A DNA stretch of 64,000 nucleotides, from the NCBI GenBank assembly GCA_024516035.1, contig CM044957.1:558001-622000 (forward strand). The letters run 5' to 3'. A program made the translations under genes and the position numbers. The notes below the pieces were generated by a model. The model saw only the letters and a list, made by a program, of their open reading frames with translations. It was not told the origin of the DNA and searched no databases. This document shows, in pieces, positions 5,818 through 54,300 of the stretch (position 1 is its first letter; each line of letters begins with the position of its first letter). This DNA is from Bactericera cockerelli. Its lineage: Eukaryota > Arthropoda > Insecta > Hemiptera > Triozidae.

Positions 5818-8800
5818 CGTCAAGTCGTTAGGACCTACCTCACCTGTGGTGGCCACGTGCCCCGTCACTCCTATGTTGATGGGGAAGCGGCTCTCGAAGG
5901 GGCTGCAACAGAGAGACATGACAAGTTTAAGATTGTTCTGGTTATAATATAATAATAATATAGCCCTCTGTCACTCCTATGGAGCATGGGCCTCCCCCTA
6001 TGAGGGGGGTATTGGTATTTGGTATTATACCTATATGTTTTCATACAATGTTTCTAATTTCTATGTTATAATTATGTTTGTTTTGTTGACATTTGGTTGG
6101 GCGACGTTAAATAGGGAGAAGACCAGTGTCTCGCTAGAGGACTATAAACAGAGAACAGACTAGCCAGCCCTAACAAGCCAGGCTAGCTTACAGTTCCCAA
6201 AGGGTTTAATGGCTTATAAAGAAAAAGCCAAAGTTCTTGCGATGGTTGATCGCACTTGGAAATATGTAGTTCAGGACGAGTCAACTAAAGTTGGCTGGAT
6301 ACCTAAAGTGTCTCCTAGTCCTACTTATTCTACCTAGTGTCTACTCGTCCTACCTAGTGTCTACTTGTCCTACCTAGTGTCTACTCGTCCTACCTAGTGT
6401 CTACTTGTCCTACCTAGTGTCTACTTGTCCTACCTAGTGTCTACTCGTCCTACCTAGTGTCTACTTGTCCTACCTAGTGTCTACTTGTCCTACCTAGTGT
6501 CTACTTGTCCTACCTAGTGTCTACTCGTCCTACCTAGTGTCTACTTGTCCTACCTGGTGTCTACTTGTCCTACCTAGTGTCTACTTGTCCTAACTGGTGT
6601 CTACTTGTCCTACCTGGTCCGCTCCTCCGCCTCCTCCTCCAGATCACTCGCCTCGAAGTCAAACACGCGGGAGAAGCTCCCCTTGTCCTACCTAGTGTCT
6701 ACTTGTCCTACCTAGTGTCTACCTGTCCTACCTAGTGTCTACTTGTCCTACCTAGTGTCTACTTGTCCTACCTAGTGTCTACTTGTCCTACCTAGTGTCT
6801 ACTTGTCCTACCTGGTGTCTACTTGTCCTACCTAGTGTCTACTTGTCCTACCTGGTCCGCTCCTCCGCCTCCTCCTCCAGATCACTCGCCTCGAAGTCAA
6901 ACACGCGGGAGAAGCTCCCCTTGTCCTACCTAGTGTCTACTTGTCCTACCTAGTGTCTACTTGTCCTACCTGGTCCGCTCCTCCGCCTCCTCCTCCAGAT
7001 CACTCGCCTCGAAGTCAAACACCCGGGAGAAGCTCCCCTTGTCCGCTTTGTGCAGCAGTAATACCTGGGGAAGAGAAATCATTCTTTAAACCATTCATAT
7101 TGTACACACTATTGTAAACACCATAGAGCGCGCGATTAGCTCAGTGGTTGAGCACTCACTTGCCATGCGGAAGGTCCCGGGTTCGTTCCCCGTGCCGACA
7201 AAAATTTGTATTCTTAATTTGGTTACAATTGTTTGTAAAGGATACCTTCCGGTGAGCTCGTGTTCACCCAGCATCTAAATGGAAAGTATTGTGTCACTTT
7301 TCACCCATCAGAGGGGGGCATACTACGGGATGAACATTGGACAAGCTAAGCTACACAGATCGTCTACAGTAGCTCCTGTTCCGTGGCTACGAAATAAAAC
7401 AGGCTGTGAAACACTCATCCTTTTTTTCTTATTAAAGAATATTTTTTTCCTACTTTTGAGAGTGCGTCAAACAAGCGAATAGATGACCGGTTCTATAAAT
7501 TTCATGAAACCTATATTCTTGTGAAATGTAAGAACCAAAATAGAATCATTTGACATGGCGGGAGCCTAGGTACTCCGTCTGGGCGTCCATATAATTCTTT
7601 CACCACCAGGAAGATCTGTGCCTATCTTACGCACACAGAATTATCTGAACTTTTTTTTTACATTTTATCTATTTATTAACAATTTTGGATATTAACAAAG
7701 GTTCTATTCCTAATAATACCTCCCTAACAAACATTCACATATTTTTTTAACTGTATGAACTATTATTGTAAGTGCTTTTGTTCATTTTTGTATATTATTG
7801 ATGTCAAATACATTGCCTATTATTACAAATTACAAAAATTACAGATGTAAATAAATTTCAATAAAGAGTTTACTACTACTTACTTGTACCCTCTGACACT
7901 GGATGAGGGATTGTGTGTGGGTGAGTATCCTGAAGACCATGTGCTCGATGGTGCTTTGCTCCTCGAATATCATGCGCGCTAGGTCCAGGAGTACCTGACA
8001 ACATAAAGGAAAATATTACTTTTTATTACAAGTGTTTAATTTTTGACATATTAATTTAATAGTCATATAGTTTTTTTTTAATCTAAATAACATATACTTC
8101 ATCTAAAGAATTTGTGAGGGTATTTTTTATTTTTTTTTATGATTTAAAATTGACAAATATTCCCCTACAAAACAAGTGGACTGTATACCACAGTATACCC
8201 TCAGTGTGGAGTAGTGGCATTACATAATTATGTGCTACCTATTATGTACAACTATTAATGTAAATAAATTACAAATACAAAGCTCTTGCCCTAAGCTATA
8301 AGTTATATTAAACTCGTAAATAACTGTAACAAAATTTATTATTATTAACTGAAGTTTTAAGTCTCATTCAACAGCTAGGTCACCTCCACACGGACCTCAC
8401 CCAGCCTGGGTTGGGCCGGAATACTAGCATCACGAAGTCTTCACATATGTAACTAAATATGTAACCAAATTCTACATATATACAATATTTTGTTGGATCT
8501 GGGGTTCGAAACCCTGACCTTTCGGATGGTGAGATCAACAATATCAATACTAACACTCTTTAGAGGAAGGTAACCACCAGGCGACGTTAATGCTCAAATC
8601 ATTTTCCACCACCTAACCCTCAAAGTCACATTATGTGTTCACAAACTCGAATTAATGAGGAAAAATTCATGCACTGGGTGGGATTTGAATCAACGGATGC
8701 CTACGCTACCTGGATTACCAGACTAGCGCGTTAACCACTTGATTACCAGTACCCTACAAGTTTTTGTCGACTGTGGGGTTCGAACCCATGACCTTCCGCA

Positions 8801-11800
8801 TGGCAAGATCCGTCTCACATGGTTCCTCTTCACTTCCAGCTGGCTCTTCTCTTCTCATACACTCACCTGGTTCCTCTCACTTCCAGCTGGCTCTTCTCTT
8901 CTCATACACTCACCTGGTTCCTCTTCACTTCCAGCTGGCTCTTCTCTTCTCATACACTCACCTGGTTCCTCTTCACATCCAGCTGGCTCTTCTCTTCTCA
9001 TACACTCACCTGGTTCCTCTTCACTTCCAGCTGGCTCTTCTCTTCTCATACACTCACCTGGTTCCTCTTCACTTCCAGCTGGCTCTTCTCTTCTCATACA
9101 CTCACCTGGTTCCTCTTCACTTCCAGCTGGCTCTTCTCTTCTCATACACTCACCTGATTCCTCTTCACTTCCAGCTGGCTCTTCTCTTCTCATACACTCA
9201 CCTGGTTCCTCTTCACTTCCAGCTGGCTCTTCTCTTCTCATACACTCACCTGGTTCCTCTTCACTTCCAGCTGGCTCTTCTCATACACTCACCTGGTTCC
9301 TCTTCACTTCCAGCTGGCTCTTCTCATACACTCACCTGGTTCCTCTTCACTTCCAGCTGGCTCTTCTCTTCTCATACACTCACCTGGTTCCTCTTCACTT
9401 CCAGCTGGCTCTTCTCATACACTCACCTGGTTCCTCTTCACTTCCAGCTGGCTCTTCTCTTCTCATACACTCACCTGGTTCCTCTTCACTTCCAGCTGGC
9501 TCTTCTCTTCTCATACACTCACCTGATTCCTCTTCACTTCCAGCTGGCTCTTCTCTTCTCATACACTCACCTGATTCCTCTTCACTTCCAGCTGGCTCTT
9601 CTCTTCTCATACACTCACCTGGTTCCTCTTCACTTCCAGCTGGCTCTTCTCTTCTCATACACTCACCTGATTCCTCTTCACTTCCAGCTGGCTCTTCTCT
9701 TCTCATACACTCACCTGGTTCCTCTTCACTTCCAGCTGGCTCTTCTCTTCTCATACACTCACCTGGTTCCTCTTCACTTCCAGCTGGCTCTTCTCTTCTC
9801 ATACACTCACCTGGTTCCTCTTCACTTCCAGCTGGCTCTTCTCTTCTCATACACTCACCTGGTTCCTCTTCACTTCCAGCTGGCTCTTCTCATACACTCA
9901 CCTGGTTCCTCTTCACTTCCAGCTGGCTCTTCTCTTCTCATACTCTCACCTGATTCCTCTTCACTTCCAGCTGGCTCTTCTCATACACTCACCTGGTTCC
10001 TCTTCACTTCCAGCTGGCTCTTCTCTTACACTCACCTGGTTCCTCTTCACTTCCAGCTGGCTCTTCTCTTCTCATACACTCACCTGGTTCCTCTTCACTT
10101 CCAGCTGGCTCTTCTCATACACTCACCTGGTTCCTCTTCACTTCCAGCTGGCTCTTCTCATACACTCACCTGGTTCCTCTTCACTTCCAGCTGGCTCTTC
10201 TCATACAGCTGCGCGTTCCTTAGCCCTATCCCGCAGAACTGCAGGTAGCTGGCGAACACCTTCTCGTCATTGGTGGTGAAGCAGCCGTCGTTGTGCTTGT
10301 TGATCACCTGGAGGTGGTCAATCAATCAGCAAAGTAATTAAAATCCATTTCACAGCCTTTATATTTCGTAATAGCCATGAAGCAGCAGCTACTGTAGATG
10401 TAATCTCATCCCGTAGGATGCCTCCCCTCTGATGGGCGAGAAGTGACACAATACTTCCCATTAAGGTGCTGGGTCAACACGAGCACACCGGAAGGTATGC
10501 CTAACAAACAACTGTAACCAAATTTGATTTTTTAAAAAATTGTCGGCTCGGGAGTTCGAACTCCGCGACCATCCGCATGTCAAGCGAGTAACTTATCAGT
10601 TAGCTAATCGTGCTCTTCATAATTAACAGAATTCCGAAACAGCTGGACCAATTTTATTGACTCCCAATTTGGCGCAGGGTCTTTCTTTTTGGTATTCAAG
10701 TGCGTACCAAGAAAGGATTTTAAAAACTCCATATACGACGACAGCCACGCGTAAAAAACTCAACGGCGACATAGTGCCGGGTTTTAGCTGATTAATTTAA
10801 TTTAATTTTTTTTTTTAATTTTTGATTAATTTATTTTATTTTTTATTGTACATGAAATACAACTCACGATCAGATATATAAGAGTAAAATAAATAAAGAA
10901 AAAGGTCCAGCTATTAATTAGCGTCTCGTTCTTTTTCTTTGCCTTTTCCCAAACCTACTTGGGGTCGGCATATATCAAGTAATAGTAATACATTTGCATG
11001 AAAAATAAAGAAAGTAAGGCAAAGTCCCTATGAACCCTGTGTACCCTATTTTAAAGAAAATTTTAACATAAAAGAAATCAAAGTGATCGGATTGCTGATT
11101 GGTGCACGAGGTGCAATGACGAGTTTTTTTGAAGAGTTCAGAAAAAATTTTAACCTTCCGAAATCCATTTTAAAAGAAATAACGACATCAACAGTTAGAG
11201 GTTCTTGCAAGATTATCCATAACCATCTCTATAAAAACAACCTGAACAAAACATCAAAAAAAAAGAAGAAAAAAAAAAAAAAAAAAATTGTAAAAAAGAA
11301 ATTCATCCACCATATTTAATGTCCAAAATCACCATACTATGTACTACTGTGTCTATAGGCAAACATCATGAGATGTCAGTTGTTGTTATTAATATATTCA
11401 ACGTTTATTATTATTACTGACCTGGGCCACTCCTATAACGTCCCCGTTGAAATCCTTGATGGGCATACACAGAAGGGTCCTGGTCTTGTAGCCCGTCCTG
11501 GCGTCTATGTCCTGGTTGAATCTCGTATCCTGCGACGGAGATACACGAAGGTTAAAGCAAAGTTTAAACTATCCTGCCACGAAGATACACGAAGATATTA
11601 ATAATAATAAGCCCAGTAAACGGTTGTTTATTAACGGAGCTAGTCCAATTTACAAATGTCAATATATATAAACACAACAATAAAGGTAAAAAAATATGTC
11701 AAATAAATTTAAAAATATCACAGATTAAAGCAAAGTTAAAATATCCTCTATGTTATAGACCTTGTAGTAAAATACATCTATAAAAAAATGTTTAAAAAAA

Positions 11801-28438: not shown

Positions 28439-28843
28439 CTGAAACACACGATGCACGGATGTTATCAGTTATCATAATTATGTCCGTCTCTTTTTTTTTT
28501 TCTTTTTTTTTCTTTTTGGTCTAAGCTCAAGAGTTTTCGAGAATTGTGGCAAATCTTCCAAGGTCCGTCCAAGTGTCGAGATAAAGCACATTAGCACAGG
28601 CTACAGGTCTGCCCATTGAATTCAATACTGGAGGAATTGGAGGAGCTCATACTAAGAGCACGCTCCGCTCTATGCTTGCGAATTTGCAGATCCCGATGCA
28701 GACACACACACAGTCGCAAATTATTCGCAAATATGAAACTGCACAAAACAAAACACACAGAAACTGCGTCGAGATTTAGTCATGCAAAAATAATAAGCCG
28801 TCAGTGGCGTGGATGAGAAATACGCGGGGGAGGGCTCACAAGT

Positions 28844-31330: not shown

Positions 31331-31430
31331 NNNNNNNNNNNNNNNNNNNNNNNNNNNNNNNNNNNNNNNNNNNNNNNNNNNNNNNNNNNNNNNNNNNNNN
31401 NNNNNNNNNNNNNNNNNNNNNNNNNNNNNN
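31331..31430. other. Assembly gap (100 N)
   Basis: Exactly 100 N, the usual placeholder for a gap of unknown length. It lies between the penultimate ACLY exon and the most 5' Pde11 exon found, so it may hide the last ACLY exon and 3' UTR, the Pde11 first exon, or both. Confidence 0.97.
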
Positions 31431-31877
31431 TTTTTTCATTGTTAAAATAATTATTTGTACTGTACATATGTCCATTTATATCTAATAAAGTGTTGAATAA
31501 TAATAATAATAATACAATGTTTCCGAAGTGCAATCATGTGCCATTCTGGGTACAGCCCACATTCTCAGAAAGTTTGGTGTATAATTGAAAGCGATTTAGC
31601 TAACGTCTAAAGAATATGGTTTATTCTCGATGTTAATAATTTGTTTGTACGATAAAAAAATAAATTATCTTGCGTTGTATGCCAAAATAATAATACCATT
31701 AAAAAAATATCACTACTGTGATCAACGACAACTCTTTTTTTACTTTAAGAAAAAAAAAAAAAAAAAAAAAAAACGAAAAAAAAAAAAAACGAAAAAAATA
31801 TCACTACTTACACGCAACTCTTTATTAAGAAAAAAAAAAAAAACCCTGCACCAGGGGACGGAGCCCCCCCGACTCAC

Positions 31878-32151
31878 CGATGAACCCGATGGAGCGGCCC
31901 AGCACGAACAGCCCGTTGATGGCGCCCATCTCCACGTACTCCTGGGCCTCCTCGCGGGTGAAGGAGCCGCTGTGCCGCAGCAGATCCACGAAGGCGACGG
32001 CGATGACCCCGTCCACGTTCAGGATGAGGTTCGGCTTCTTGGAGGTGGTGATCTTCTCCACCTCCAGCGCGTAGTTGAGAAGGGGCGTGGCCGGGAAGCT
32101 GGAGAGGACGAACTCCTTGATGATCTTCACGCGCATGTCCGGGTTGTTGAT
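31878..32151 (-). CDS. ACLY: ACLY exon 16 (penultimate)
   Basis: Acceptor tcctcggccag|ATC, donor TTCATCG|gtgagtcggg; 91 codons plus one base. Contains [34 protein letters not shown] and [11 protein letters not shown]. The expected final HYLDQKRLKQG exon is not seen downstream. Confidence 0.95.
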
Positions 32152-33286
32152 CTGGCCGAGGACGGAGGATTTTGATTTGATTTGATTTGGTTTATTTTTT
32201 TCATAACAATTTTAAATTTACAAAAATAACATCTCCTAAGCTAATTAAAATAACTTATGAGGAGATTGTCAACAGTTTTTAACAATTGAAGACCACACGG
32301 AAAAACGATGAGGGTACAAAAAATGAAAGAAAAGGTTTTGGATATTAGGGTACTGTAGATTTGATGTTTAGTATTATTGCAAAAACCGGTACCGCCTACA
32401 CCCCCATCTATACCGTTAAAATTCTATTCTATTCTATTCTACTAAGTATCTTAATATAAAAAATACCCATCCACGGAAAGAATGATGAAGGTGCATCAGC
32501 CACAGCAAGAAATACTATTACGTGCCGTGACTGATGCACCTACTATTATAATATTTCCATCTATACAGCCTATTTTATTCTTTAAAAAGATCCAGTAAAA
32601 CTTAATTCATTAAACTGCGACAGAGCTTTGAACTTTAAATCTTAATTTTCTCGAAATGAAAAATCGTGAACCTTCATTTTTCTTCCCGTGTGGTCTTCAA
32701 TTGTGTTAACAACTTTTGTAATGTGTTCACAATTTTTGAAGAAATTAAAATACAATAAAATGAAACCTAAACCTAGATTGCATGAGTCAATCAATTCATC
32801 AATTCTTCTTCTTTTACTCTGCTTTATCCCGCTTAAGCAGGGTCGACGTTGTTCAACCTTATGGTTGAGGTTAGTTGGTAATGAATTTTGAAAAAATCAT
32901 TGAAAAACAGTCTTTTTCTCTACACCCTGTATGGGAAAGGTCGACAGTGACAAGTACTTCATTCAATTTTGAAAGCTAGCTTTCATGTCTTTGCTATCTC
33001 TGTAATAATTTTTGTGTGATTTCCGAAATTAGAAAAAATATGAAAAATATTTTTGTCGAACAAGAAATACACACGTTATACGAGAAAAAACCTATGCGTT
33101 CCAATAAGTTTGTCACTCAGTGAGTGGTCAAAATCCCCAATGCGAGTATAATTTGCATGTCCGGGTGGGTTTTTTTGTCTTTTTTTACAGCATAATAAGC
33201 ATTACAGATTCCTCTAATATATGTGTATAAAAAATGGCGTTCTTTCACACACGGAATTTTTTATAGGGATATCATAATTTTTTTAT

Positions 33287-33322
<36 letters not shown>

Positions 33323-36300
33323 GAGTAAATAAAAGCATGGCTGCGAACCACTCGTAAAGAAAAAGGAGGCATGTGGTACAACTCACAGACTTGACCCTGT
33401 GTCCGATTCCCATGATAAGCTTTCCCTTCTTGCGCATCTCATTCACAAACTCCATGGGGATGTGGCCCGCGTCATAGGCAGCACTGAACTGCTTGGCCGC
33501 GTCATTGAGAGCTCCACCGAACCTGTCTCCCTGTTGAGCCAAACAAGAAAGGGTTGTGTGTAAATAATAACATACAAACTATATTTACCTTTTTTTTTTC
33601 TTCTTTCAACAAATAACTTCTAATTATTTACATTTTTTTGTTATTTACAATGCATGAAAAGAATATAAATATCAAAAAAGACAAAAACAAAATTTTAAAT
33701 CATGAGTATCCCATAGCCTAATTTACTTATTAACCCTTTGACGCCGAGCGTGTCGTTTTCGACACAGGTACTTTGACATTCAATAATTATTCACTAGAAT
33801 ACAGTATCATTATCGTTTCAGTGTGAAACAGTTCCTTGACTTCTTATCTTCAAATCTATCCAGCGCGATTTTTGAATTGTTTTGTTTACATTTCTAAATT
33901 TTCATTTGTTGCTGAGATTTCGAGAGTGCATCATCGCATGGAGTTTTGCCGACTTTGGCAAGTTATTTCTTGTGTTTCCTGGTCGATTATTTTACGATGA
34001 AAAAATGAAAAAATTAATAGAGGTAGCTAATATGCTTATTAACATATAGTTTTAAAGAAAATTGTAATAATTTTCTACATTCTTGTTCCTTTAAAGCCCG
34101 GTGTGTCGTTTTCGACACGGATTCATAACTTTTTACCGGTAAAAGCTAGAAAGCTGAAACCAACGCCAAAAGTCTTAGAAAACCATCAGGATGAAAGAAA
34201 AGTTGGTTGCGATTTTTTTCCCCCGGCCAAATTAATTCCGGCGTCAAAGGGTTAAGTATGTGCTAGGGGCTATGGTAATATAAAAATTAATAATTGATGA
34301 AAAAATGAAGCACTTTATAAATATAAGCACTGTAGTTTCTCGGAGGCGTTCTCCGCGAAACGACCGTTTCGCTTGATAATATATAAATGTACTTGTTTGT
34401 GTTTTTATGTCAAAAAATTTAGTGGGAAGCGCAGAATAAAAGGACTTCTTTTTTTTCCTTGAATATCCTGATATCTTATTTTTGCCCATAATTCCACCAC
34501 TGGAGCCCAGAACAATGCTTCTGGACGTCGAACGCGATAAATACCCATATCAATTGTTCCACCACCAACACCCAAGGACACGGAAAGTAAATATAAAGTA
34601 TAGTAAAATACAAATAAGTAAATATATAAACGCTTCTCTTTTTTTCCTAACAAGTTGTTGTTGTTCTTGTTGTTGTAGCCAGCTTGGCTATAGCTGGAGG
34701 GGGGAATAATGGTCTCCAGCCAACTTTAGTTCAAAGTAGGCTCGTCCTGAACCTGACAGGTCATTAATATCACTAGGTCAAGACCAAGGGTTGGGTGGAA
34801 GAGATTGCCACGGGCAATAACCCCGCCCTTTAGTTAGGACATTACATTAGCTTCATTCTCTTTTTTGTTCTTGTTTCTTTGTTCAATCTATTTATTTTTT
34901 AATTTCATTGTATTTTACTGTATATATTTTTGTCTTACCTAATAAAGCATACTATGTATAGTAATAATAATAAGAGTGTTAACATTAATAATAATGTTAA
35001 CACTCTGTAGATACACAAGGTGTCCAAGTTTTTTTTTTTTTGTTGAAAATTTCAGAATCAATAATAATAAAATTAAATAACTAGACGACTCACAATAGTC
35101 AGGAGACCGGACACCAGGGAAGACACGAGATCCTTGCCTGCGCGCGCACACACGATGGTGTTGTGCGCCCCGGACACGGCGGGCCCGTGGTCTGCGGTCA
35201 CCATCAGACTCATCTCCAGGAACTTGCACACGTAGGGGGGCAGCTGGCGCTGGAACCAGAGCAGGCTGAGGACGCCCCCGATGCCCATATTCTGCTTGAG
35301 CACGTCTGAGATGGGCATGCCCGCGTACAGGAGCTCCTGGCCGCGCTCGTCACAGATGGAGGTCATGAAGGAGGCGGGCTTGCGGATGAGTCCCAGCTCC
35401 TGGGTGGGGGACATAGAATAGAATAGAATAGAATATACCTTGTTTATACTGCCGAGGTAAGACTGAAAAGTTCCTTTACTCCAGCAGTCAAACAGGTATT
35501 ATATATTTTATGGGATAAATATATATTTTATGGGATAAAATAGAGAGTGGGTTAGTGAATTAACTTGGAAGTCATGAAGGAGGCGGGCTTGCGGATGAGT
35601 CCCAGCTCCTGGGGGGCGGAGATAGAGATTGTGTTAGTATATTAATTTTTTTATTTATTTAGAAACTCTTTATTAGTAGGTAGAACATATGTACAGACAA
35701 ATAATGGTAAATATAAAAATAGACCATATTAATCTCTATATATAAAACAGAAAAAAGGACTACCTACCTACCTACCTACCTACCTACCTACCTACCTATG
35801 TTTGTTTGTTTGTCCGGAGTTGTTTAGCCAAAACGGTAAGAGATAGCGAAAAATGTCTCAGAATTGACCCCCCCAAAACCATTATCGCTTTGTCCAGAAA
35901 AATTATAAAAAGTTCAAAAAGGCATTGCTGTCCAGCAGTACGGCCATGCCTTAGTAAATTTGAAATTTAGTCCCGTTGCAAAGCACGGGCAAACGGCTAG
36001 TAATAAATAAACAAGGAAAAAAAAAAAAAAAATATATACATATGTCCTAACTAAAGGGCGGGGTTATTGCCTATGGAAATCTCTTCCACCCAACCCTTGT
36101 TTTTTTAAAACTAAAACTAAATTAACTTGGAGGTCATGAAGGAGGCGGGCTTGCGGATGAGTCCCAGCTCCTGGGTGGCGGATAAAGGGATTGGGTTAGT
36201 AAATGTTAGTGTCACCTCTCGCCCATCAGAGGGGAGGCATACTACGGGATGGATAGACTACAACACAGACCACAAGCGTCTACAGTAGCTCCTGTTTCAT

Positions 36301-39300
36301 GGCTACGAAATAAAAACGGCTGTGAAACACTCATCTTTAAAAAAAAAAAAAAAAAAAATAACTTGGAAGTCATGAAGGAATCGGGCTTCCGGATGAGTCC
36401 CATAAAGGGATTGGGTTAGTATAATATTGGGTAAATGGGGAGGAGAAAAAGTGTTAGTGGGAAGATAGAGTAAAGCTAAAGGGTGGCGGATAAAGGGATT
36501 GGGTTAGTAAATTAACTGGCTGAAAACTGGCACTGTTATTATTATTATAGCCTTTATTCTGACTTTTATTCTTAAAAATGCTGTTATTTTTACTATTATT
36601 ATTTTACTTTATTCAATTATTAGTGTATTGATGTTATAGGTGGGAAACCACTGCTTTGTAATGCACTCTAAATAAAATAAAAAAATTTAAGAAAAAAAAA
36701 TTGAAATTGAAATTTATTTGAATAAATTTTCAATACATATCCAAAATAAGCATAGACAATAAGTTTTGTTTTATTTTTTTCCATCATGTATTCATTTATT
36801 ATTTTTCGATTAATTTTCTAATGTTAAGTATTATTATTATTATTATTGAATATTTTATTAGAAGGACAAATACAAACAAATAAAATACAAAATGAAGAGT
36901 AATAAAAACAGACAATACACTAATTCAGTATGTACAGATGACCTAAAGGGCGGGGTCATTGCAAATGGCAATCTCTTCCACCCAACCTATGGAACACTGT
37001 CGCCGCTGAGGTTTTTGCCCGTGTAAGATAATAAATCCTTGTCCACTCACCCTGGCCCACGAGTAGTGCATGGGCACGGTGTATAATTATATAAACACAT
37101 TTATTTTAAGCTATTATATTAACCAGTTAAGGTAGTTAGGATTTTAGTTTTTTTTTAATTTAGTTTTTAATATATAATGTTAAGTAAAAATGTATAATGG
37201 AACCCCCCCCGTTCATGTAAAAAAAAAAAAAAAAAAAAAAAAACATGTCCACTCACCCTGGCCCACGAGTAGTCCATGGGCACGGTGGGCGGGGGCAGCT
37301 CAGGCTGGGGCACGATGTCCCCCCGCTTCACCAGGTCCTGGTACACGGAGGCGATGAGCTCGCCCAGCGTGTCGAAGGAGGTGGGCACGTGTCCACCCGC
37401 GGCAGCCAGGGCTTTGTTCTTGGCGACGGCTGTCTCCGAGTCTGAGTTGGCGCACGAGCCCGCGTGTCCGAACTGAACCTCCGAGGTGAACATGCCTGGG
37501 GGTGGTGAGAAGATGAAGGGTAGTTTATTTATTTATTTAGAAACTCCTTATTAGTTGAACATATATACAGAAAAATAATAGTAAAAATTAAATATAAAAA
37601 TTGACAATATTAATAATATAAAAAAAAAACAAATATATACATAATATATCCTAACTAAAGGGCGGGGTTATTGCCTATGGCAATCTCTTCCACCCAACCC
37701 TCAAATTACTGTTTTAGGGATTTTTTAAAGACATTTTCACCCTAGTTATATAATTAACAAAACCTTCTCCAAGGTTTTTAAATCTTACTTCTGACCATTT
37801 AGACCTGGGTAGTGGGTATGCTTGGTAAAAAGAATTAACTTTATTTTTTATTCTAGGCACAAGCTCTATTATTTTATATGTACAATTGTACATGTGTCAA
37901 AATAAAATAAAGCAATAAAAAGTTAAAAAAAACCGTAGTTCAAACTACAGTCAACCAACCCTTCGCCATTGAAACCTTTGGCTCCTTTGGGGCAAGTGCT
38001 TTGGAAATGTTTAATAATAATAGATAAATATAATAATATTAATATCGCCTTATTTATACTGCCCGATTAAGACTATTAAGTCCATTATTCCAGCAGTAAG
38101 CCCAAGACATATTATTATGTGGTACAAATCCCAAATGGGAGGATAAGTTGTCATGTCCCGGTTGGGATTCGAACCCACGACCTCTGGAATCTCTGGATTC
38201 ACTGAGTGCCGCCTTTACCACTGAGCTACCGGGACAGACAGTTTAACTGCATATTCAAAACCTTGGTCCTTGAGACGAAGGACAGACGCGCGGGGGAATA
38301 TTTCAGGCAAAGGCTTAGTTTCACTGTTCAAAGAGGTAACGTGGCCTCAGTGCTGAGCACACTGCCTCGGGAAGATGTCCTTGGAGAAGTATTTTATGTG
38401 TTGTAAAAATAAGATGATTTACTATTTTAAGGAAAATTAACACAAGAAACAAACATGATGTTGAATAGTATTAACATAGCAGAATGCCTTCAAGTGTGAA
38501 CAAGTTATTTTTAAAATTTATTTATTTAACAGACGTTTACATCATCAGAGGTCTGCCTGTGCTAGCAGCTCCTCTACCACTTCATCATCAATTTTTTCAT
38601 TCTGATTTTTATAATCAATCATTATACTTTCTAATGTTCTTTTCAGCACCACATTCTGGATGTGTTATAAATAATATAAAAATAATGTGTTTCTTTGTGT
38701 TATTATATCACAATTTTAGTGGGTAGGGCAAATTATAGGACTTTTCCGTATCTTTACAATTCCAATATCTCATGCCACTGGTGGCATCACTCACTCGCAC
38801 AGGTCCCGATACACCACGCCACCAGCGGCTTGCTGATCCTCTTGCTCTGCAGCGCCTCCGTCACCTCGTACTCCTCCACGCCCCCACCTCCACCTCCCCC
38901 ACCTACACCTATGTCCCCCACTCACTAGCACAGGTCCCGATACACCACGCCACCAGCGGCTTGCTGATCCTCTTGCTCTGCAGCGCCTCCGTCACCTCGT
39001 ACTCCTCCACGCCCCCACCTCCCCACCTACACCTATGTCCCCCACTCACTCGCACAGGTCCCGATCACCCCCCCACCTCCCCCCCCCCACCTACACCCAT
39101 GTCCCCCACTCACTCGCACAGGTCCCGATACACCCCCCCCCCCTACACCCATGTCCCCCACTCACTGGCACAGGTCCCGATACACCACGCCACCAGCGGC
39201 TTGCTGATTCTCTTGCTCTGCAGCGCCTCCGTCACCTCGTACTCCTCCACGCCCCCCCCCCCACCTACACCCATGTCCCCCACTCACTCGCACAGGTCCC

Positions 39301-42300
39301 GATACACCACGCCACCTACACCTATGTCCCCCACTCACTCGCACAGGTCCCGATACACCACGCCACCTACACCTATGTCCCCCACTCACTCGCACAGGTC
39401 CCAATACACCCCCACCCCCTACACCTATGTCCCCCACTCACTCGCACAGGTCCCGATACACCACGCCACCTACACCTATGTCCCCCACTCACTCGCACAG
39501 GTCCCGATACACCACGCCACCTACACCTATGTCCCCCACTCACTCGCACAGGTCCCGATACACCCCCCCCACCTCCACCTATGTCCCCCACTCACTAGCA
39601 CAGGTCCCGATACACCCCCCCCACCTCCACCTATGTCCCCCACTCACTCGCACAGGTCCCGATACACCCCCCCCCTACACCTATGTCCCCCACTCACTCG
39701 CACAGGTCCCGATACACCCCCCCCCCTACACCTATGTCCCCCACTCACTCGCACAGGTCCCGATACACCCCCCCCCCTACACCTATGTCCCCCACTCACT
39801 CGCACAGGTCCCGATACACCCCCCCCCCCTACACCTATGTCCCCCACTCACTCGCACAGGTCCCGATACACCCCCCCCCCTACACCTATGTCCCCCACTC
39901 ACTCGCACAGGTCCCGATACACCCCCCCCCCCTACACCTATGTCCCCCACTCACTCGCACAGGTCCCGATACCCACCCCCCCCCTACACCTATGTCCCCC
40001 CCACCACTCGCACAGGTCCCGATACACCCCCCCCCCCTACACCTATGTCCCCCACTCACTCGCACAGGTCCCGATACACCCCCCCCCTACACCTATGTCC
40101 CCCACTCACTCGCACAGGTCCCGATACACCCCCCCCCCCCTACACCTATGTCCCCCACTCACTCGCACAGGTCCCGATACACCCCCCCCCTACACCTATG
40201 TCCCCCACTCACTCGCACAGGTCCCGATACACCCCCCCCCCCTACACCTATGTCCCCCACTCACTGGCACAGGTCCCGATACACCCCCCCCACCTACACC
40301 TATGTCCCCCACTCACTCGCACAGGTCCCGATACACCCCCCCCACCTACACCTATGTCCCCCACTCACTCGCACAGGTCCCGATACACCACGCCACCAGC
40401 GGCTTGCTGATTCTCTTGCTCTGCAGCGCCTCCGTCACCTCGTACTCCTCCACGCCCCCACCTCCCCCCCACCTACACCTATGTCCCCCACTCACTCGCA
40501 CAGGTCCCGATACACCCCCCCCCCTACACCTATGTTCCCCACTCACTCGCACAGGTCCCGATACACCACGCCACCAGCGGCTTGCTGATCCTCTTGCTCT
40601 GCAGCGCCTCCGTCACCTCGTACTCCTCCACGCCCCCCACCTCCCCGAGGAGGCAGATCATCTTCACGGCGGGGTCCGCCTGGTAGCGCAGGATGTGGTC
40701 CATGAAGGTGGTGCCCGGATATCTGTCCCCGCCTATGGCCACGCCCTCGTACACCCCGTTCGTCGCCTTCGAGATGATGTTGTTCAGCTCGTTCGACATG
40801 CCGCCCGATCTGAGAACATGAACGTTATAGTATAGTATATTTATTAGTTTTTTTTTTTTTCGTCATATTTGTTTAATCACTTTCGTGATGTCACAACTAC
40901 TCAAACTCGCTTTACTAAATCTACGCTGAAACCGGGACTTTAACCACCGACCTCGAGGTTACAAGTCCGCTGCCTTATCGATCAAGCCACTGACGTCGGT
41001 AATAATAATTTTATTACCATAAGTGGAAGTGGAAGAGATTGCCATAAGTAGAAACAACTATCCGGAAGAGTGTGGTCCTGCAAACGTGTCATGTTGTGCG
41101 GAACATACTAGTTATAGTTTTAGTGTGATAGACTGAAATGTCTCCTCACTAGTAACTTAGAAGCAAAAAAAAAAAAAAAAATTTTACTGATCGCTAAGGA
41201 CTAACGAGTCCCATTGTTCCAGCAGTAAGCCCCTGACGTATTATTATGTGGTCAAAATCCCAAATGGGAGGATAACTCGTCATGTCCCGGCTGGGTTTCG
41301 AACCCGCGACCTCTGGCTTACCAGTCAGACCGGGACAGAACGTTTAACCAACTTAGAGATTGCCATCAGCAATTACCCCGCTCTTTAGTTAGGACATCTG
41401 TATATAATTGTATAATTGTATTAATGTATTTTCTTTTTTTCTCATTTAGTAATATATTTGTATTTGTTTTTCAATGCAAATACCCAAAGCTCTTGGATCC
41501 ATTATTTCTTCAAAATTGTCACCTCATATTCAAAAATTAATCGCAACATATATTTGTAAAAATAAAATAATAATATCGCCTTATTTATACTGGCCGATTA
41601 GAACTATAAAGTCCCATTATTCCTGCAGTAAGCGCCCAAGACATATTATTATGAGGTAAAAATCCCAAAATGGGAGGATAACTTGTCAAGTCCCGGCTGG
41701 GTTTCAAAAACCCGCGACCTCTGGTATATCTGGATTCACAGAGTGCCACCTTTACCACTGAGCTACCGGGACAGATAGATTAAAAAAAAAAAAAAAAAAT
41801 CAAAATCCTAGACACTCTACCTGGACACGTAGGCTACGCTAGCGGGGCGATACAGCTATCAATATCCTAGACCTATACTCTACCTGGACACGTAGGCTAC
41901 GCTAGACCTCTACTCTACCTGGACACTTAGGCTACACTAGACCTCTACTCTACCTGGACACGTAGGCTACGCTAGACCTATACTCTACCTGGACACGTAG
42001 GCTACGCTAGACCTATACTCTACCTGGACACGTAGGCTACACTAGACCTCTACTCTACCTGGACACGTAGGCTACGCTAGACCTCTACTCTACCTGGACA
42101 CGTAGGCTACGCTAGACCTCTACTCTACCTGGACACGTAGGCTACACTAGACCTCTACTCTACCTGGACACGTAGGCTACGCTAGACCTCTACTCTACCT
42201 GGACACGTAGGCTACGCTAGACCTCTACTCTACCTGGACACGTAGGCTACGCTAGACCTCTACTCTACCTGGACACGTAGGCTACACTAGACCTCTACTC

Positions 42301-45300
42301 TACCTGGACACGTAGGCTACGCTAGACCTATACTCTACCTGGACACGTAGGCTACGCTAGACCTCTACTCTACCTGGACACGTAGGCTACGCTAGACCTA
42401 TACTCTACCTGGACACGTAGGCTACGCTAGACCTATACTCTACCTGGACACGTAGGCTACACTAGACCTCTACTCTACCTGGACACGTAGGCTACGCTAG
42501 ACCTATACTCTACCTGGACACGTAGGCTACACTAGACCTCTACTCTACCTGGACACGTAGGCTACACTAGACCTCTACTCTACCTGGACACGTAGGCTAC
42601 GCTAGACCTCTACTCTACCTGGACACGTAGGCTACGCTAGACCTATACTCTACCTGGACACGTAGGCTACGCTAGACCTCTACTCTACCTGGACACGTAG
42701 GCTACGCTGCCGGGTCGGTACAGCTATCATAATCCTAGACCTCTACTCTACCTGGACACGTAGGCTACGCTGCCGGGCCGGTACAGCTATCATAATCCTA
42801 GACCTCTACTCTACCTGGACACGTAGGCTACGCTGCCGGGGCGGTACAGCTATCAATATCCTAGACCTATACTCTACCTGGACACGTAGGCTACGCTGCC
42901 GGGGCGGTACAGCTATCATAATCCTAGACCTATACTCTTCCTTCCCAAGCGCTTTTATCATTTGTAGTGGTACCTGTCCGATGTGCATCCAAATTCACAT
43001 TTTCTGAGTAGTGTTTTCTTCCCGATCGCAATATAGGGTTTGTAATGGTATCTTCCCAAGGTGCATTCAAATGCACAAACACTTTTCTGAACTCATGTTG
43101 ATTTTAATCTTTAATGTGAACGGATATTTATTACAGAGGTTTTTTCAAAGGAAGGAGAACTCTGTGCGTTATAATAGGCGGGACAATTTTGTCTTGGTAT
43201 GATAGCATTACCAAAAAAATGTGCATTCAGATGCACATTGGGAAGGAAGAGGCTATACTCTACCTGGACACGTAGGCTACGCTGCTGGGGCGGTACAGCT
43301 ATCAATATCCTAGACCTATACTCTACCTGGACACGTAGGCTACGCTGCCGGGGCGGTACAGCTATCAATATCCTAGACCTCTACTCTACCTGGACACGTA
43401 GGCTACGCTGCCGGGGCGGTACAGCTATCAATATCCTAGACCTATACTCTACCTGGACACGTAGGCTACGCTGCCGGGTCGGTACAGCTATCAATATCCT
43501 AGACCTATACTCTACCTGGACCTCTACTCTACCTGGACACGTAGGCTACGCTAGACCTCTACTCTACCTGGACACGTAGGCTACGCTAGACCTCTACTCT
43601 ACCTGGACACGTAGGCTACGCTAGACCTATACTCTACCTGGACACGTAGGCTACGCTAGACCTATACTCTACCTGGACACGTAGGCTACGCTGCCGGGTC
43701 GGTACAGCTATCAAAATCCTAGACCTATACTCTACCTGGACACGTAGGCTACGCTAGACCTCTACTCTACCTGGACACGTAGGCTACGCTGCCGGGTCGG
43801 TACAGCTATCAATATCCTAGACCTATACTCTACCTGGACACGTAGGCTACGCTAGACCTCTACTCTACCTGGACACGTAGGCCACGCTGCCGGGTCGGTA
43901 CAGCTATCATAATCCTAGACCTATACTCTACCTGGACACGTAGGCTACGCTGCCGGGTCGGTACAGCTATCAATATCCTAGACCTATACTCTACCTGGAT
44001 ACGTAGGCTACGCTGCCGGGGCGGTACAGCTATCAATATCCTAGACCTATACTCTACCTGGACACGTAGGCTACGCTGCCGGGGCGGTACAGCTATCAAT
44101 ATCCTAGACCTCTACTCTACCTGGACACGTAGGCTACGCTGCCGGGGCGGTACAGCTTAGAGTGCAGAATGTTGTCCATCATGCCACCCGTGTTCCCGAT
44201 CTTGAAGCAGCCGGGCTTGAGGCCGCCCACAGTGGCGGGCCCGATGATGCTTACGCCCTTCTCCTTGGCGGCCAGGTTCAGCTTCCGCGTCATGTTCTCG
44301 GGGATACCTGGGCGCCAATAGATAATAAATAAATAAACCTGGGCGCCAATAGATAATGTATAAATAAACCTGGGCGCCAATAGATAATAAATAAATACAC
44401 CTGGGCGCCAATAGATAATAAATAAATAAACCTGGGCGCCAATAGATAATAAATAAATAAACCTGGGCGCCAATAGATAATAAATAAATAAACCTGGGCG
44501 CCAATAGATAATGTATAAATAAACCTGGGCGCCAATAGATAATAAATAAATAAACCTGGACACCAATAGATAGTAAAAAAATAAACCTGGGCGTCAATAG
44601 ATAATAAATAAATAAACAAACAAACGCGCCAATAGACAATGTATAAATAAACCTGGGCGCCAATAGATAATGTATAAATAAACCTGGGCGCCAATAGATA
44701 ATGTATAAATAAACCTGGGCGCCAATAGACAATGTATAAATAAACCTGGGCGCCAATAGATAATGTATAAATAAACCTGGGCGCCAATAGATAATGTATA
44801 AATAAACCTGGGCGCCAATAGATATGTATACATAAACCTGGGCGCCAATAGATATGTATAAATAAACCTGGGCGCCAATAGATAATAAATAAATAAACTT
44901 GGGCGCCAATAGATAATAAGTAAATAAACCTGGGCGTCAATAGATAATAAATAAACAAACCTGGACGCCAATAGATAATGTATAAATAAACCTGGGCGCC
45001 GAATAGATAATGTATAAATAAACCTGGGCGCCAATATATAATGTATAAATAAACCTGGGCGCCAATAGACAATGTATAAATAAACCTGGGCGCCAATAAA
45101 TAATGTATAAACAAACCTGGGCGCCAATAGATAATAAACAAATAAACCTGGGCGCCAATAGACAATGTATAAATAAACCTGGGCGCCAATAGATATTGTA
45201 TAAATAAACCTGGGCGCCAATAGATAAGAAATAAATAAACCTGGGCGCCAATAGATAATAAATTCAGAGAGGTAATGCCATGAGCACTCGTCAAATTTTT

Positions 45301-48300: not shown

Positions 48301-51300
48301 CCTCCTTGTGTCCCCAGTAGAACTTGAGCTTGTGGTCGCCGGTGAAGGGATAGACCATGGCCGCCACCGAGGGCTCCGCCCTCTGGCACACGAAGTCAAA
48401 GTCCAGCATAGACTGGACGGCGCGCGTCTGCATGCCCCACACGATGGCGCGCGTCTTGGCCGAGAAGAGAGGCTTGGGCCCGCCCCCCCCGGAGGCGCCG
48501 CCCAGACTGAAGCCACCGGGCCCCGAGGCGGAGGTGGGGGTGCTGGCGGGGGAGGGGGAGGCAGGGGCGGCCTTGCTCTTGGACTGGAAAGAGAACGTGA
48601 AATAATTATTCAACAATTTAGATCAATCTTTTTTACAATTTTTTATATAGGTACAGTCAAAAGGTATAATTAATTAAATATAAACAAAGTTTGATCAAGG
48701 GTGGTGATAATGCCTTTGGCATTCTCTTCTAATTGTCAGTGAGATGTTAGGATCAAGATTAGAAGCCCTTCAAAGCTTAGGAGAATTATTTTTGTATAAA
48801 TGTTTCTTTATAAAGAAAATAAATAAACTATTATTATTAAATTAAAAAAAGTAGGTAGGCTAAGGCCGGTTTCAGTAAGTGCAATCAGTTAAAGGTACTG
48901 AAATTTTGTGAAACACGGCGTTTTTTTGGACCAAAGGTAATCAGAAGACTGAGTGCTTGTTGGACTGCGAGAGATCCTGATTGAGAGAGATGTATATCAA
49001 CAATATTGTGACATTATATTACATTGCTGTTATGTACTACGATGTACTTACTTGCTGGGTCAACAAGAGCACACCGAAACGGGTCCCTTACAAACAACTG
49101 TAACCAAATTTTGAATGCAAAATTTTTGTTGGGTCTGGGGATCGAACAACCATGTTACTGATTCAATTCAATTCAAATGTTTAGTTATTGATTTAAAGTG
49201 CATATACAAAACAGTTAATAAAAACCAATTACATTGTTAATACACTATATAAAAAAAAGAGGAACAAAAAAGTAAGTTAAAAAAAAGAAGTTAACAATAA
49301 ATAAAAGAATATTATAAACAATTTGTTAGAATAAATTAAACAAGACTTAAGAATCTATCTCAAAAAACATCCGTTTGAGGTTAGAAATAAAAACACTCAA
49401 ATTCTGAGCGTAGTCAAGATCAGGGTGACTATTACAGAGACTCAGAACCCTCAATATGGGTACAATATTTGAAGGAATTGCCTTAAATGGAATATGTTGA
49501 CGGCGACTAGATCTCCTTAAACTAGGTATGTTAAAAACTATTTGGGATGACAGAAAATCACAGTCGGTGATGTTGTTGAGAAGTTTGTAAATAAGCATTA
49601 TGTCTTTGTATTTCCTTCGAGCTTCTAGTCTTGTAAGACCGTAAGTTTGAAGAGAAATATTATATGAATTTGAAAACCCTAAGGCACGGAAAGAAACTCT
49701 CCTAAGGAAGTTCTTCTGCACTTGCTCAATTTGACCAGTGGTGACATCTCCAACACCACCCCAGACCTCCGAACAATATTCTAATTTCGAGCGAACAAGA
49801 GCACTAAAAAGTACCGAATAGGAAGAAGGGTTGCGGAAGGTTTTAGTGGCCCAGAAGACAACACCAGAGGATCTTTTAGCATTCGCTATCATTTTTTGAA
49901 TATGGTAATCAAAGTTTAATTTATTGTCAAAGAGAACACCTAGGTCCTTATGTACATGTTTTCTGCTAATGAGAATGTTATTAATCCTATAGTTATGGTA
50001 CCTTACAACATGTTGCCTCGAGTACCTAACAACAACAGTTTTATTATTATTACACTGCATTCCATTCTTAGAACACCAACATATAACCGAATTAATATCA
50101 CTTTGAAGAATTTCATGATCATGAGGGTCGCTCTGCTAATTTTGAGGTCATCAGCAAAAATTTGAAAATGACTAGATATGACATTTTTAATGTCATCAAA
50201 AAAGAGAATAAACAACAGGGGACCAAGATTGGAATAATAATAATAATAATACCTTATAATAATACCTTTCACTAAGGAGTGTTAACTCCTTAGTGAAAGG
50301 TAACCACCAGGCGAGGTTAATGACCAAATCTAACCCTCAGACCCTTATTATGTGGTTAAAAACTCAAATTAATGAAGAAAAATTCATGCACTGGGTGGGA
50401 TTTGAACATTCGAAAAAACTGACATTTTTTTCCGGTCGGTTTTAAATAACAAAAAACGGCAATTTTGTTTTTCGAATCAATAATACCCGGGCAGTAAAGC
50501 AGGTGCGTCGTCACGCTTACCTGGTCTTGTCCTCCGGGCAGCAGGAAGTTGGCGGTGGCCCCGTCAGCACTGGTCTCGGAGGGGATCTCCTTCTTGCCGA
50601 GAGCCATGCCGACGATAGCAGTCATGTGGGTCTCCGGCCCGAACACAAACAGGGGGATGCCCAGGGTCTTGCCGACCTCGCGGATGATTCTGCAACAAGA
50701 GATAGTTATATCATATTATTTGTGTTTATCACTTTCGTGGTATCACAACTGCAACTTGCTTAACAAAATCCACGCTGAAACCGGGACTTGAACCGCCGAC
50801 CTCCAGGTTACAAGTCCACCGCCTTATCGTTCAAGCTACTGTAACAAGAGATAGCATTTTCTTTTTCCAATATCTGACAAGACTTCAGTTAAGGATTGGA
50901 TGGAAGAGATTGCCATACGCAATAACGCCGCCCTTTAGTTAGGGAATATGTATAAATATTTATTTTTATTGTTTATATTGTTTCCATTTTTCATTTTTAT
51001 AATACTTATTTTTTCTGCACATATGACTTTATAGGGTAACTTCGCCAGTAATTCACCAGACCCCAGTAGTAGACCAAAATTGAAATTTCCCTCCATTATT
51101 TCCTGTTCGGAAGGTTTGATGGTTCTAGTGATTATTAAGCAGCATGTAAAATGTTCTTATGCATTCTTTGCTCTTGACAACAGTGGAAAAGTTTTGGAGG
51201 TATAAGAACATTTTACATGATGCTTAATAATCACTAGAATGATTTTATTTTTATTTTAAAACCTGCCCATCCCGTAGTGTGCCTCCACTCTGATGGGCGA

Positions 51301-54300
51301 GAAGTGACACAATACTTCCCATTTAGGTGCTGGATCAACACCAGCGCACCGGAAGGTATCCCTTACAAACAAATGTAACCAAGTTTTTTAATACAAATTT
51401 TTGTCGGCGCGGAGTTTCGAACCCGGGACCTTCCGCATGGCAAGCGAGTGCTTAACCACTGAGCTATTCGTGCGCTATATGAACGTTTACAATGAACTTT
51501 GGAGAGCACCTCACCTGAGCCCCTCCTGGTAGTTAGGCCCCGCCCTCCTCACGAAGATGGAGATCTTGTGCTCGATCAGTTTCGACTGGAACTCTGTGAG
51601 GGCGGTGACGATGCCTTTGAAGGTGGCGGCCACATTGGTGAAGTTGGCAATGCCTCCGCCTGTGATGAGCACCTGTGGGCGAGAGGAGAAGGGGTGTGAA
51701 GATGGCTACGCATCGGTGGAAATCCAAGATGAGACGAACAATATCTATAGTATCTATACCTATGTACGAGTATACGAGTATGTACAACTATACACGGGTA
51801 TAGATATGTACATAATTATAGATCTACACGAGTATGTACAATTGTACATAGGTATAGATATAGATATGTACATAGGTACAGATATAGATATGTACATAGG
51901 TACAGATATAGATATGTACATAGGTACAGATATAGATATGTACATAGGTACATATCTATACGATTGTGTACAATTGTACATAGTTTGTTATAGATCTTGC
52001 TAACAAGCCTTAAGCTCAATAGAAGGAGGTCACTTGAAGAATTTGAAGTTTGATAGTAAAATACAAAAAATAAATGAGTATTAAAAAAAATTGTACATCA
52101 ACAAAATTGTGACATTACATTGCTTCTTAGCACCTCCTGCACTCACCTTGCCCTGGGGATGCTTCTCCTGCGTCATGAGGGACAGGATGTTAACCCCTTG
52201 ACTACCAGAGTCCCCTCCTGCACTCACCTTGCCCTGGGGATGCTTCTCCTGCGTCATGAGGGACAGGATGTTAACCCCTTGACTACCAGAGTCCCCTCCT
52301 GCACTCACCTTGCCCTGGGGATGCTTCTCCTGCGTCATGAGGGACAGGATGTTAACCCCTTGACTACCAGAGTCCCCTCCTGCACTCACCTTGCCCTGGG
52401 ATGCTTCTCCTGCGTCATGAGGGACAGGATGTTAACCCCTTGACTACCACCAGTCCCCTCCCGCACTCACCTTGCCCTGGGGATGCTTCTCCTGCGTCAT
52501 GAGGGACAGGATGTTAACCCCTTGACTACCACCAGTCCCCTCCCGCACTCACCTTGCCCTGGGGATGCTTCTCCTGCGTCATGAGGGACAGGATGTTAAC
52601 CCCTTGACTACCACCAGTCCCCTCCTGCACTCACCTTGCCCTGGGGATGCTTCTCCTGCGTCATGAGGGACAGGATGTTAACCCCTTGACTACCAGAGTC
52701 CCCTCCTGCACTCACCTTCCCCTGGGGATGCTTCTCCTGCGTCATGAGGGACAGGATGTTAACCCCTTGACTACCAGAGTCCCCTCCTGCACTCACCTTG
52801 CCCTGGGGATGCTTCTCCTGCGTCATGAGGGACAGGATGTTAACCCCTTGACTACCAGAGTTCCCTCCTGCACTCACCTTCCCCTGGGGATGCTTCTCCT
52901 GCGTCATGAGGGACAGGATGTTAACCCCTTGACTACCACCAGTCCCCTCCCGCACTCACCTTGCCCTGGGGATGCTTCTCCTGCGTCATGAGGGACAGGA
53001 TGTTAACCCCTTGACTACCACCAGTCCCCTCCCGCACTCACCTTGCCCTGGGGATGCTTCTCCTGCGTCATGAGGGACAGGATGGTCTTGGCGTACTCGT
53101 ACGTCTGCTGCTCGCTGGGGGCGCCACTGTACTCGCCGTAGTTGGCGAGCTCCTCGGCCCCGCCCAGGTCGCATATGGTGTCGCTGTACACGACGGAGGC
53201 CCCGCCCCCCGCCACCATGGTCCAGATGCGGCCCTTCTTGTTCAGAATGGTGAGCTGCGGGGAATGATACACACGGGCAGTTGCATGTGAATAAGACAGA
53301 TACATACAAAAAATGTACATAAATACTAAAAAAATTGAGAATATACAGATAAATAAAAAAAATGTACATAAATATTTAAAAAATTGAGAATATACAGATA
53401 AAAAAGTGTACAAAAATTGGGTAATTCTCTACCCACTTCTCTTAGAAGCCCTTCAAAGCTTAGGAGAAGTACCTTTGTATAAATATTTCTTTATAAAGAA
53501 AATAAATAAATAAACTATTATTATTATTATGCAACGATTCACATTGGACCTCAACGAAACTTTAAATATTAATAAAAATTGATTAACATTTTAAAATAGC
53601 TTTGTTTATTTTCGTTATGTTCTTTTGTTTTGTAAAATGTTCTTTGCTTTGATGAAAAAAAGAAAAGAAATCGGAGCAAAAAATATATTATTTTCTTTTT
53701 TTACAAAAAGGAAAACAATACTTTCGATTTCTAATATTAGAAATTCATGTGAAGTAATAAAGTATCTACCTTGAAAAAAAGAAAAAGAAGAAAAAAAAAA
53801 AAAAAAAAAAAAAAACCCCCACATACATAGATCACTTATTCAGTACCTTGAGCGAGGCGCCACTCTTGGCGTCCAGGTCGGCGATGTACGCCTCCTCGGG
53901 GAAAGCGTCCCTGCCGAAGGGCGGCGGGTACACCACGGCCCCCCACTGGGCGCGACAGATGAAGTCCGCCGTGGCGTCCAGCTTGGCGGCCAGGTCCAGA
54001 ATGTAGATCGTGTCGGCGGTCACCACCAGGGGGTTGATCTCGAGGTAGGTGAAGTAGAGGTTCACGTACAGGTTGTACAGGGCGGTCACGAACTTGGCGA
54101 TCATCCTGTGACAAAAAAAAAAAAAAAAAAATCTTATGGATTTTCTACAGCTCTTTTGATTTGGGCGGTGGACCAAAAACTCCAACTCCTTATGTAAATG
54201 TATAATTTTGTACATACCATGTGCAATTTTGTTCAAATATAAGATCCATACGATGGATAATTTAATAATCCTGTCTGTAACCGGTTCGAACCACAGAACC

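What the first reader, a model, noticed from the sequence alone, without database searches (positions are those of the whole stretch)
6306..53041. Splice-junction minisatellites: six arrays whose monomers are copies of the adjoining exon/intron boundary
Arrays at 6306-6969, 8819-10169, 38786-40546, 41812-44120, 44308-45262 and 52128-53041 each touch a coding exon. Each monomer contains that exon's own splice junction: exon end plus gt..., or in one case ...ag plus exon start. Unit lengths differ (20, 48/42, 50-60, 35/63, 31, 81 bp) and sequences are unrelated, so this is the same event type happening independently in two unrelated genes. Two more junctions (exons 13 and 14 of ACLY) carry one to three copies. 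That makes 8 of about 50 visible junctions. Random minisatellite birth would not be expected to start at splice sites so often. Possible causes: replication slippage or R-loop/transcription-linked repair at junctions, or selection that removes arrays intruding into exons while junction copies stay tolerated. Tandem duplication of AG|GT segments has been proposed as a route of intron gain; these arrays look like a runaway form.
Basis: partly seen in the sequence, partly recalled or inferred. Interest (0 to 1): 0.88.

Follow-up and report, generated by a model that had tools for sequence, protein, structure and literature searches.

The report
Splice-junction minisatellites ("mirages") in psyllid genes
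In this sap-sucking insect the DNA at the edges of many gene segments has been copied over and over in tandem into the neighbouring spliced-out DNA, a curiosity previously named "mirages" in lancelets, and in the genes sampled it is more common at those edges than chance would give.

Summary
The window is from a psyllid (ACLY product 94% identical to Diaphorina citri) and holds ACLY and a PDE5-like gene. In an objective test 8 of 47 splice junctions have further copies of themselves within 4 kb; 9 with the exon-11 acceptor array, whose unit has only 2 exonic bases. Flanking DNA predicts 0.6-0.8 junction arrays of at least 100 bp; 7 are seen. Copies recur at 2 of 12 junctions in the rest of the PDE gene and 9 of 60 in seven myosin loci, but 0 of 8 in muscle Mhc. 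Long gene-body arrays hold a junction in 16 of 22 cases. At six donors tested an early stop precedes the first decoy donor, and decoy GTs change as often as neutrality predicts: the arrays look like tolerated intron DNA. The kind is known, as lancelet "mirages". New here: an insect host, the frequency (19 of 127) and a measured enrichment. Most likely tandem duplications across junctions, hidden by splicing and then expanded; why junctions are favoured is open.

The parts
6321..7044 (-). Array A: PDE5-like exon F donor (junction 6969|6970); 20-bp monomers ctag|GTAGGACAAG and interspersed 78-bp units
   Evidence: longest shared string GGACAAG (78-bp joint, shuffle P 0.04) and AGGTAG (20-bp joint, P 0.13)
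8813..10207 (-). Array B: PDE5-like exon D donor (junction 10169|10170), 43/48-bp unit, 29 further junction copies
38788..40646 (-). Array C: ACLY exon 12 donor (junction 40546|40547), about 52-bp and 131-bp units, 28 further junction copies
   Evidence: AGGTGGGGGG shared by exon and intron (shuffle P 0.014)
41799..44157 (-). Array D: ACLY exon 11 donor (junction 44120|44121), 35- and 63-bp units, 45 further junction copies in two blocks
42937..43252 (.). 316-bp insert splitting array D, 14-bp inverted ends CTCTTCCTTCCCAA, AGTATAG on both sides
44306..45263 (-). Array E: ACLY exon 11 acceptor, 31-bp unit ...GCGCCCAG|GT (2 exonic bases), about 30 copies
52133..53084 (-). Array F: ACLY exon 6 donor (junction 53041|53042), 81-bp unit, 11 further junction copies
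37040..37081 (-). single displaced copy of the ACLY exon 13 donor (original junction 37256|37257)
35558..36402 (-). three displaced copies of the ACLY exon 14 acceptor (35558-35639, 36119-36204, 36355-36402) with other sequence between; the test counts two of them
56255..56375 (-).

Best explanation
These are mirages: minisatellites born when a short stretch spanning an exon/intron junction is tandemly duplicated. Shown: one copy stays as the real junction, the others lie in the intron, and at six donors an in-frame stop precedes the first decoy donor. Inferred: splicing uses the exon-proximal site, so the mRNA is unchanged and the duplication is tolerated; the repeat then grows and turns over like any minisatellite; the first step is slippage or microhomology-mediated template switching. 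Also inferred: junctions are a real birth hotspot in this genome, because neither local array density nor GC content accounts for the excess. The cause of the hotspot is not known.
For: Junction copies at 8 of 47, 2 of 12 and 9 of 60 junctions. Excess over flank density and over a GC-matched rate. Tandem clusters (offset up to 250 bp): 18 of 119 junction windows (about 3.0 per kb) against 42 clusters in 7,161 intron centres (about 0.59 per kb). 16 of 22 long gene-body arrays hold a junction. Two unit lengths at one junction (20/78, 35/63, 52/131) point to repeated births at the same place. Longest exon/intron shared string above shuffles at 2 of 6 joints (7 bp P 0.04, 10 bp P 0.014). Stops precede the first decoy donor at 6 of 6 donors tested. 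Decoy GT changed in 1 event in 524 cells, 2.1 expected. The product made with exon-proximal junctions matches D. citri ACLY at 94% over the whole query.
Against: No RNA data. The hotspot rests on 19 of 127 junctions in ten genes, two of them recent paralogs; five of the eight myosin loci have none or one (myosin VI-like pair 0 of 22, mD 0 of 6, muscle Mhc 0 of 8, mE 1 of 6). Shared strings are no better than shuffles at 4 of 6 joints. Outside the window purely intronic tandem duplications are also common (37 of the 42 clusters), so the overall enrichment is about 5-fold, not 12-fold. The genome-wide pattern count did not complete.
Confidence: 0.56

Rival explanations
1. No hotspot: tandem duplications arise everywhere, exons being good seeds; those inside exons are removed by selection, those purely in introns decay unseen, and only junction ones stay, re-seeded by a copy that selection keeps constant.
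For: Counted copies lie on the intron side as far as offsets were printed; flank array units are GC-richer (0.45) than the flanks (0.36). Donors exceed acceptors, 14 of 60 against 5 of 59, Fisher P 0.043 (counts typed in, Mhc left out; P 0.045 with Mhc, 0.085 if array E is added to the acceptors), as expected if an array is easier to bear where the true site is transcribed first.
Against: GC-matching still leaves 7 seen against 0.78 expected; intron duplications of the same genes are about 5-fold rarer per kb overall and 12-fold rarer in the window. Variant events are not significantly fewer in the exonic than in the intronic part of monomers (P 0.53 and 0.33).
Confidence: 0.27
2. The hotspot has a transcription- or splicing-linked cause (R-loops, spliceosome contact, exon/intron chromatin or GC steps) that breaks junctions and lets them be duplicated. 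This is a narrower form of the best explanation.
For: Non-muscle myosin II has 4 of 14 junctions affected and muscle Mhc 0 of 8, in the direction expected for germline-transcribed genes; the intron start is slightly G-richer at affected donors (0.37 against 0.30, P 0.09).
Against: None of six exon-end or donor features is significant among 49 donors (49 of the 60 donors; paralog mB and doubtful sites left out); the gene contrast is tiny and germline expression was not measured.
Confidence: 0.2
3. The decoy splice sites are selected, for example as extra U1-binding sites that protect long AT-rich introns from premature polyadenylation or that tune splicing.
For: Donor excess; decoy GTs nearly all intact.
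Against: GT intactness equals neutral expectation, 1 against 2.1 events; donor strength is the same in affected and unaffected donors; acceptor arrays exist too.
Confidence: 0.05
4. Assembly artefact.
For: Repeat arrays are often mis-sized in assemblies (general knowledge).
Against: Monomers differ (41 variant events in nine donor arrays), several unit lengths interleave, an element with inverted ends sits inside array D, and junction arrays also occur on contigs 1, 7 and 8.
Confidence: 0.03

Closest known systems
Lancelet 'mirages' (Adh3, globins BflGb6/BflGb9, TnC, PGBD5)
   Same: Minisatellite-like tandem copies of the gene's own intron/exon boundary, at 5' and 3' boundaries, unit length different at each locus, many copies keeping AG/GT, mRNA apparently spliced normally (PMC3087553 and PMC3902484, passages).
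   Different: Host is an insect; arrays here reach about 45-50 copies and about 2 kb; enrichment over flanks and introns was measured; no RNA or polymorphism data here.
Intron gain by tandem duplication (Rogers model; ATP2A1; potato RdRp)
   Same: Tandem duplication of an AGGT segment or, in the potato gene, of a stretch crossing an intron/exon boundary (PMC4974935, passages).
   Different: There a new intron is created and used; here no new intron was shown and the copies stay inside an old intron.
Human internal tandem repeats altering gene structure in segmental duplications
   Same: Minisatellites changing genes, 53 exon and 27 intron modifications (PMC2812944, outline and sections 9 and 10).
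   Different: Not described as copies of the junction in the sections read.
Minisatellite giving multiple donors in the interferon-induced gene 6-16; human introns from tandem arrays (Zhuo 2007)
   Same: Tandem repeats carrying splice-site sequences.
   Different: The first is recalled, nothing read; the second seen only as a reference title in PMC3488318.

Membership tests
mirages | tandem minisatellite-like repeats whose unit contains the gene's own intron/exon boundary | tested here: met
   8 of 47 window junctions with >=5 bp on both sides, two of them (donor 13, acceptor 14) only as displaced copies; array E only weakly (2 exonic bases)
mirages | occur at both 5' and 3' intron boundaries | tested here: met
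   donors 14 of 60, acceptors 5 of 59, Mhc left out (counts)
mirages | unit length varies from locus to locus | tested here: met
   20 to about 131 bp in the window
mirages | do not disturb regular splicing | not testable with these tools
   no RNA; indirect only: product from exon-proximal sites matches D. citri ACLY at 94% over the whole query
mirages | length instability, germline or somatic | not testable with these tools
   one assembly only
mirages | known host range: cephalochordates | tested here: not met
   insect, psyllid; this is where they were reported in the passages read, not a structural criterion
intron gain by tandem duplication | a new, used intron lies between duplicate copies | not tested
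   intron positions were not compared across species

The most novel reading that the evidence does not exclude
Splice junctions are a genome-wide hotspot of tandem duplication in psyllids: roughly one junction in seven carries its own copies, through a process tied to the junction itself (transcription, splicing or exon chromatin) rather than to base composition. It would supply raw material for new introns and alternative splice sites, and may have arisen separately in insects and lancelets.
Probability: 0.42. Interest if true: 0.78.

Novelty: new member of a known kind. Interest (0 to 1): 0.6.

Why it matters
Tandem duplication across AG|GT is a long-proposed source of introns (PMC4974935, passages), and that paper says proven recent cases are few. 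A genome in which 19 of 127 sampled junctions carry such copies, in a group with several chromosome-scale assemblies (PMC12203342, passages), would let one measure birth rate, instability, splicing choice and conversion to new introns directly. It also warns gene annotation: decoy donors and exon fragments by the dozen lie beside real exons.

Tried and rejected
Amphioxus as the source: rejected, ACLY is 94% identical to a psyllid. Muscle Mhc 'copies' (4 hits): dropped, they are paralogous alternative exons. One mG donor hit: dropped, the chosen site is not the exon end. A G-rich signature looked possible with 6 against 18 donors but was not significant with 49 donors. Lower apparent divergence of the exonic part of some monomers was due to a few shared variants, not to significantly fewer events. 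GC content as the whole cause: not supported by the matched expectation. Array C3:542001-542386 starts about 10 bp after a donor and was not counted as a junction array; a degenerate upstream copy at the acceptor of PDE exon L3 and an old partial copy of PDE exon B near 12149-12169 were seen but not counted.

Genome-wide counts of spaced donor words were planned as the decisive in-silico test; the genome search gave no answer.
Full report
What the window is. The window lies in a 565,017,811-base assembly of 1,032 contigs, as contig 3, 558001-622000. The ACLY product assembled from window exons is 94% identical over the whole 884-aa query to Diaphorina citri ATP-citrate synthase; an unnamed record follows at 93% and Bemisia tabaci, the next named one, at 86%. 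So the organism is a psyllid. One paper gives 567 Mbp for Bactericera cockerelli (PMC12203342, passages), which is close but does not prove the species. Two minus-strand genes matter: ACLY and a PDE5-like phosphodiesterase (best solved match a cGMP-specific PDE, E 2e-123).

The observation. TRF reports all six arrays. I placed 47 splice junctions (24 donors, 23 acceptors) and asked whether a 50-bp window centred on each has another same-strand copy within 4 kb covering the junction by at least 5 bp on both sides: 8 of 47 do. They are ACLY acceptor 2, donors 6, 11, 12 and 13, acceptor 14, and PDE donors D and F, with 1 to 45 further copies. The ACLY exon-11 acceptor array is a ninth if 2 exonic bases are accepted. 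Acceptor 2 (56255-56375) was not in the finding. The same test on the window's other positions gave 183 of 1,731 non-low-complexity intron centres, many of them dispersed repeats at large offsets, and 13 of 267 exon-interior centres, of which 11 are parts of the junction units and 2 belong to an old partial copy of PDE exon B.

More than chance. In the 200 kb of flanks there are 37 TRF arrays of period 12 or more and at least 100 bp (junction arrays of the PDE gene among them, which makes the comparison conservative); their summed unit length predicts 0.61 such arrays over 47 junctions, and 7 are seen (Poisson P 3.6e-6; 2.7e-4 if every unit is counted double). With GC-matched rates from 28 flank arrays (PDE part left out) the expectation is 0.78, P 1.8e-5. 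Inside the same genes, with junction arrays masked, tandem duplications with offset up to 250 bp form 42 clusters over 7,161 intron centres at 10-bp steps (about 0.59 per kb), against 18 of 119 junction windows (about 3.0 per kb): 5-fold. In the window alone it is 5 clusters in 1,724 centres against 8 of 47, about 12-fold. So the window is a favourable sample. Of 24 arrays of at least 300 bp and period 20-300 in ten gene stretches, 18 hold a junction; merging blocks of one array gives 16 of 22 (read). Array E is counted among these 16.

Beyond the window. The rest of the PDE gene to the left has copies at 2 of 12 junctions, among them a 56-bp unit repeated about 25 times. Stretches of myosin genes were fetched from the positions of Myosin_head matches, chosen by compactness and not by array content; seven of about fifteen myosin loci were taken, plus 8 kb of muscle Mhc. 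One search printed 14 of 68 junctions; I dropped 4 in muscle Mhc, which are alternative-exon paralogs, and 1 in locus mG where the script chose a wrong site. That leaves 9 of 60 in seven loci and 0 of 8 in Mhc. Non-muscle myosin II has 4 of 14 and two more arrays at exon edges that the domain search had not listed. A pair of recent myosin VI-like paralogs has 0 of 22 (the class read by eye from the translation). In all, 19 of 127 junctions, in six of ten genes. Splice sites of the myosin exons were picked by a simple score, so these counts are less exact than those of the window.

Anatomy and working. Each counted copy is contiguous genomic DNA crossing the junction, so spliced cDNA is not the source. 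For six unit joints the longest string shared by chosen exon and intron segments is 7, 6, 10, 6, 4 and 4 bases; only the 7 and the 10 exceed shuffled segments (P 0.04 and 0.014; the others 0.13 to 0.69). Microhomology may thus help at some joints but is not a rule. Several junctions hold two unit lengths, both containing the junction (20/78, 35/63, 52/131), which suggests repeated births there. Array D contains a 316-bp insert with inverted ends, and the exon-14 acceptor copies are separated by other sequence, so arrays persist and age. At six donors (five arrays and the displaced copy of donor 13) the first in-frame stop lies 1 to 87 nt past the true donor and in each case before the first decoy donor found by the 50-bp test, at 43 to 206 nt. 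If inner donors were used often, these genes would be broken. Across nine donor arrays, 41 variant events occur in 10,043 cells, 23 of them singletons; GT changed once where 2.1 were expected, and exonic and intronic parts do not differ significantly (P 0.53 and 0.33). Decoys are therefore neither purged nor visibly kept.

Cause of the junction preference. Of 60 donors 14, and of 59 acceptors 5, carry copies (Fisher P 0.043; 0.085 if array E is added to the acceptors). This fits tolerance being higher where the true site is transcribed first; that reasoning is inference and the test is weak. GC content does not explain the excess, and exon-end GC, G-skew, G, purine content, donor strength and early-intron G do not separate 14 affected from 35 unaffected donors significantly (49 of 60 donors). 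I therefore favour a true excess of births at junctions plus tolerance, with the physical cause unknown.

What is known. [quoted passage not shown] They occur at both boundaries, with units of 10-72 bp (Adh3) and about 150-160 bp (globins), show length and somatic instability, apparently leave splicing regular, and have been proposed as a source of introns (PMC3087553, passages); TnC and PGBD5 are further cases (PMC3902484, passage). The original report is not held and I saw it only as a reference. Intron gain by tandem duplication, including one crossing an intron/exon boundary, is documented (PMC4974935, passages). None of the listings of ten searches (titles and starts of abstracts, capped lists) showed a report of mirages in an insect; the main text of one psyllid assembly paper has no word beginning with 'tandem' or 'satellite'. 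The library lacks most subscription papers, so earlier reports may exist.

Verdict. A real, non-random feature; a new member of a known kind in a new host, with frequency and enrichment measured on a small sample. RNA, population and genome-wide tests are missing.

Noticed in passing
window 4835-5141, 5309-5339 and 5609-5759: A purely intronic repeat family (71-bp unit and relatives) in the PDE gene, not containing a junction.
   Followed up: partly
window 12149-12169: Diverged partial copy of PDE exon B 265 bp downstream, preceded by GTGAGT: perhaps a decayed old mirage.
   Followed up: no
window 41207-41724, 51328-51404, 37620-37701 and others: Dispersed repeats, some with tRNA-like box sequences (SINE-like by eye), account for many non-tandem duplicate hits in introns.
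   Followed up: no
window 58166-58766 and 49347-50135: ORFs that look by eye like mariner transposase pieces and a non-LTR reverse transcriptase remnant.
   Followed up: no
G000 contig 3, 28997501-29005500 and 29207001-29222000 (L025, L023-L024): Two closely similar myosin VI-like genes (by eye) in opposite orientation about 200 kb apart, without junction arrays.
   Followed up: partly
G000 contig 3, 542001-542386 (L009 4001-4386): 27-bp repeat beginning about 10 bp after the donor of a PDE exon but not including it.
   Followed up: no
L033 4971-6208 (G000 contig 8 about 7839971-7841208): 1.2-kb microsatellite-like CTATTCTATTC array between copies of a myosin exon acceptor.
   Followed up: no
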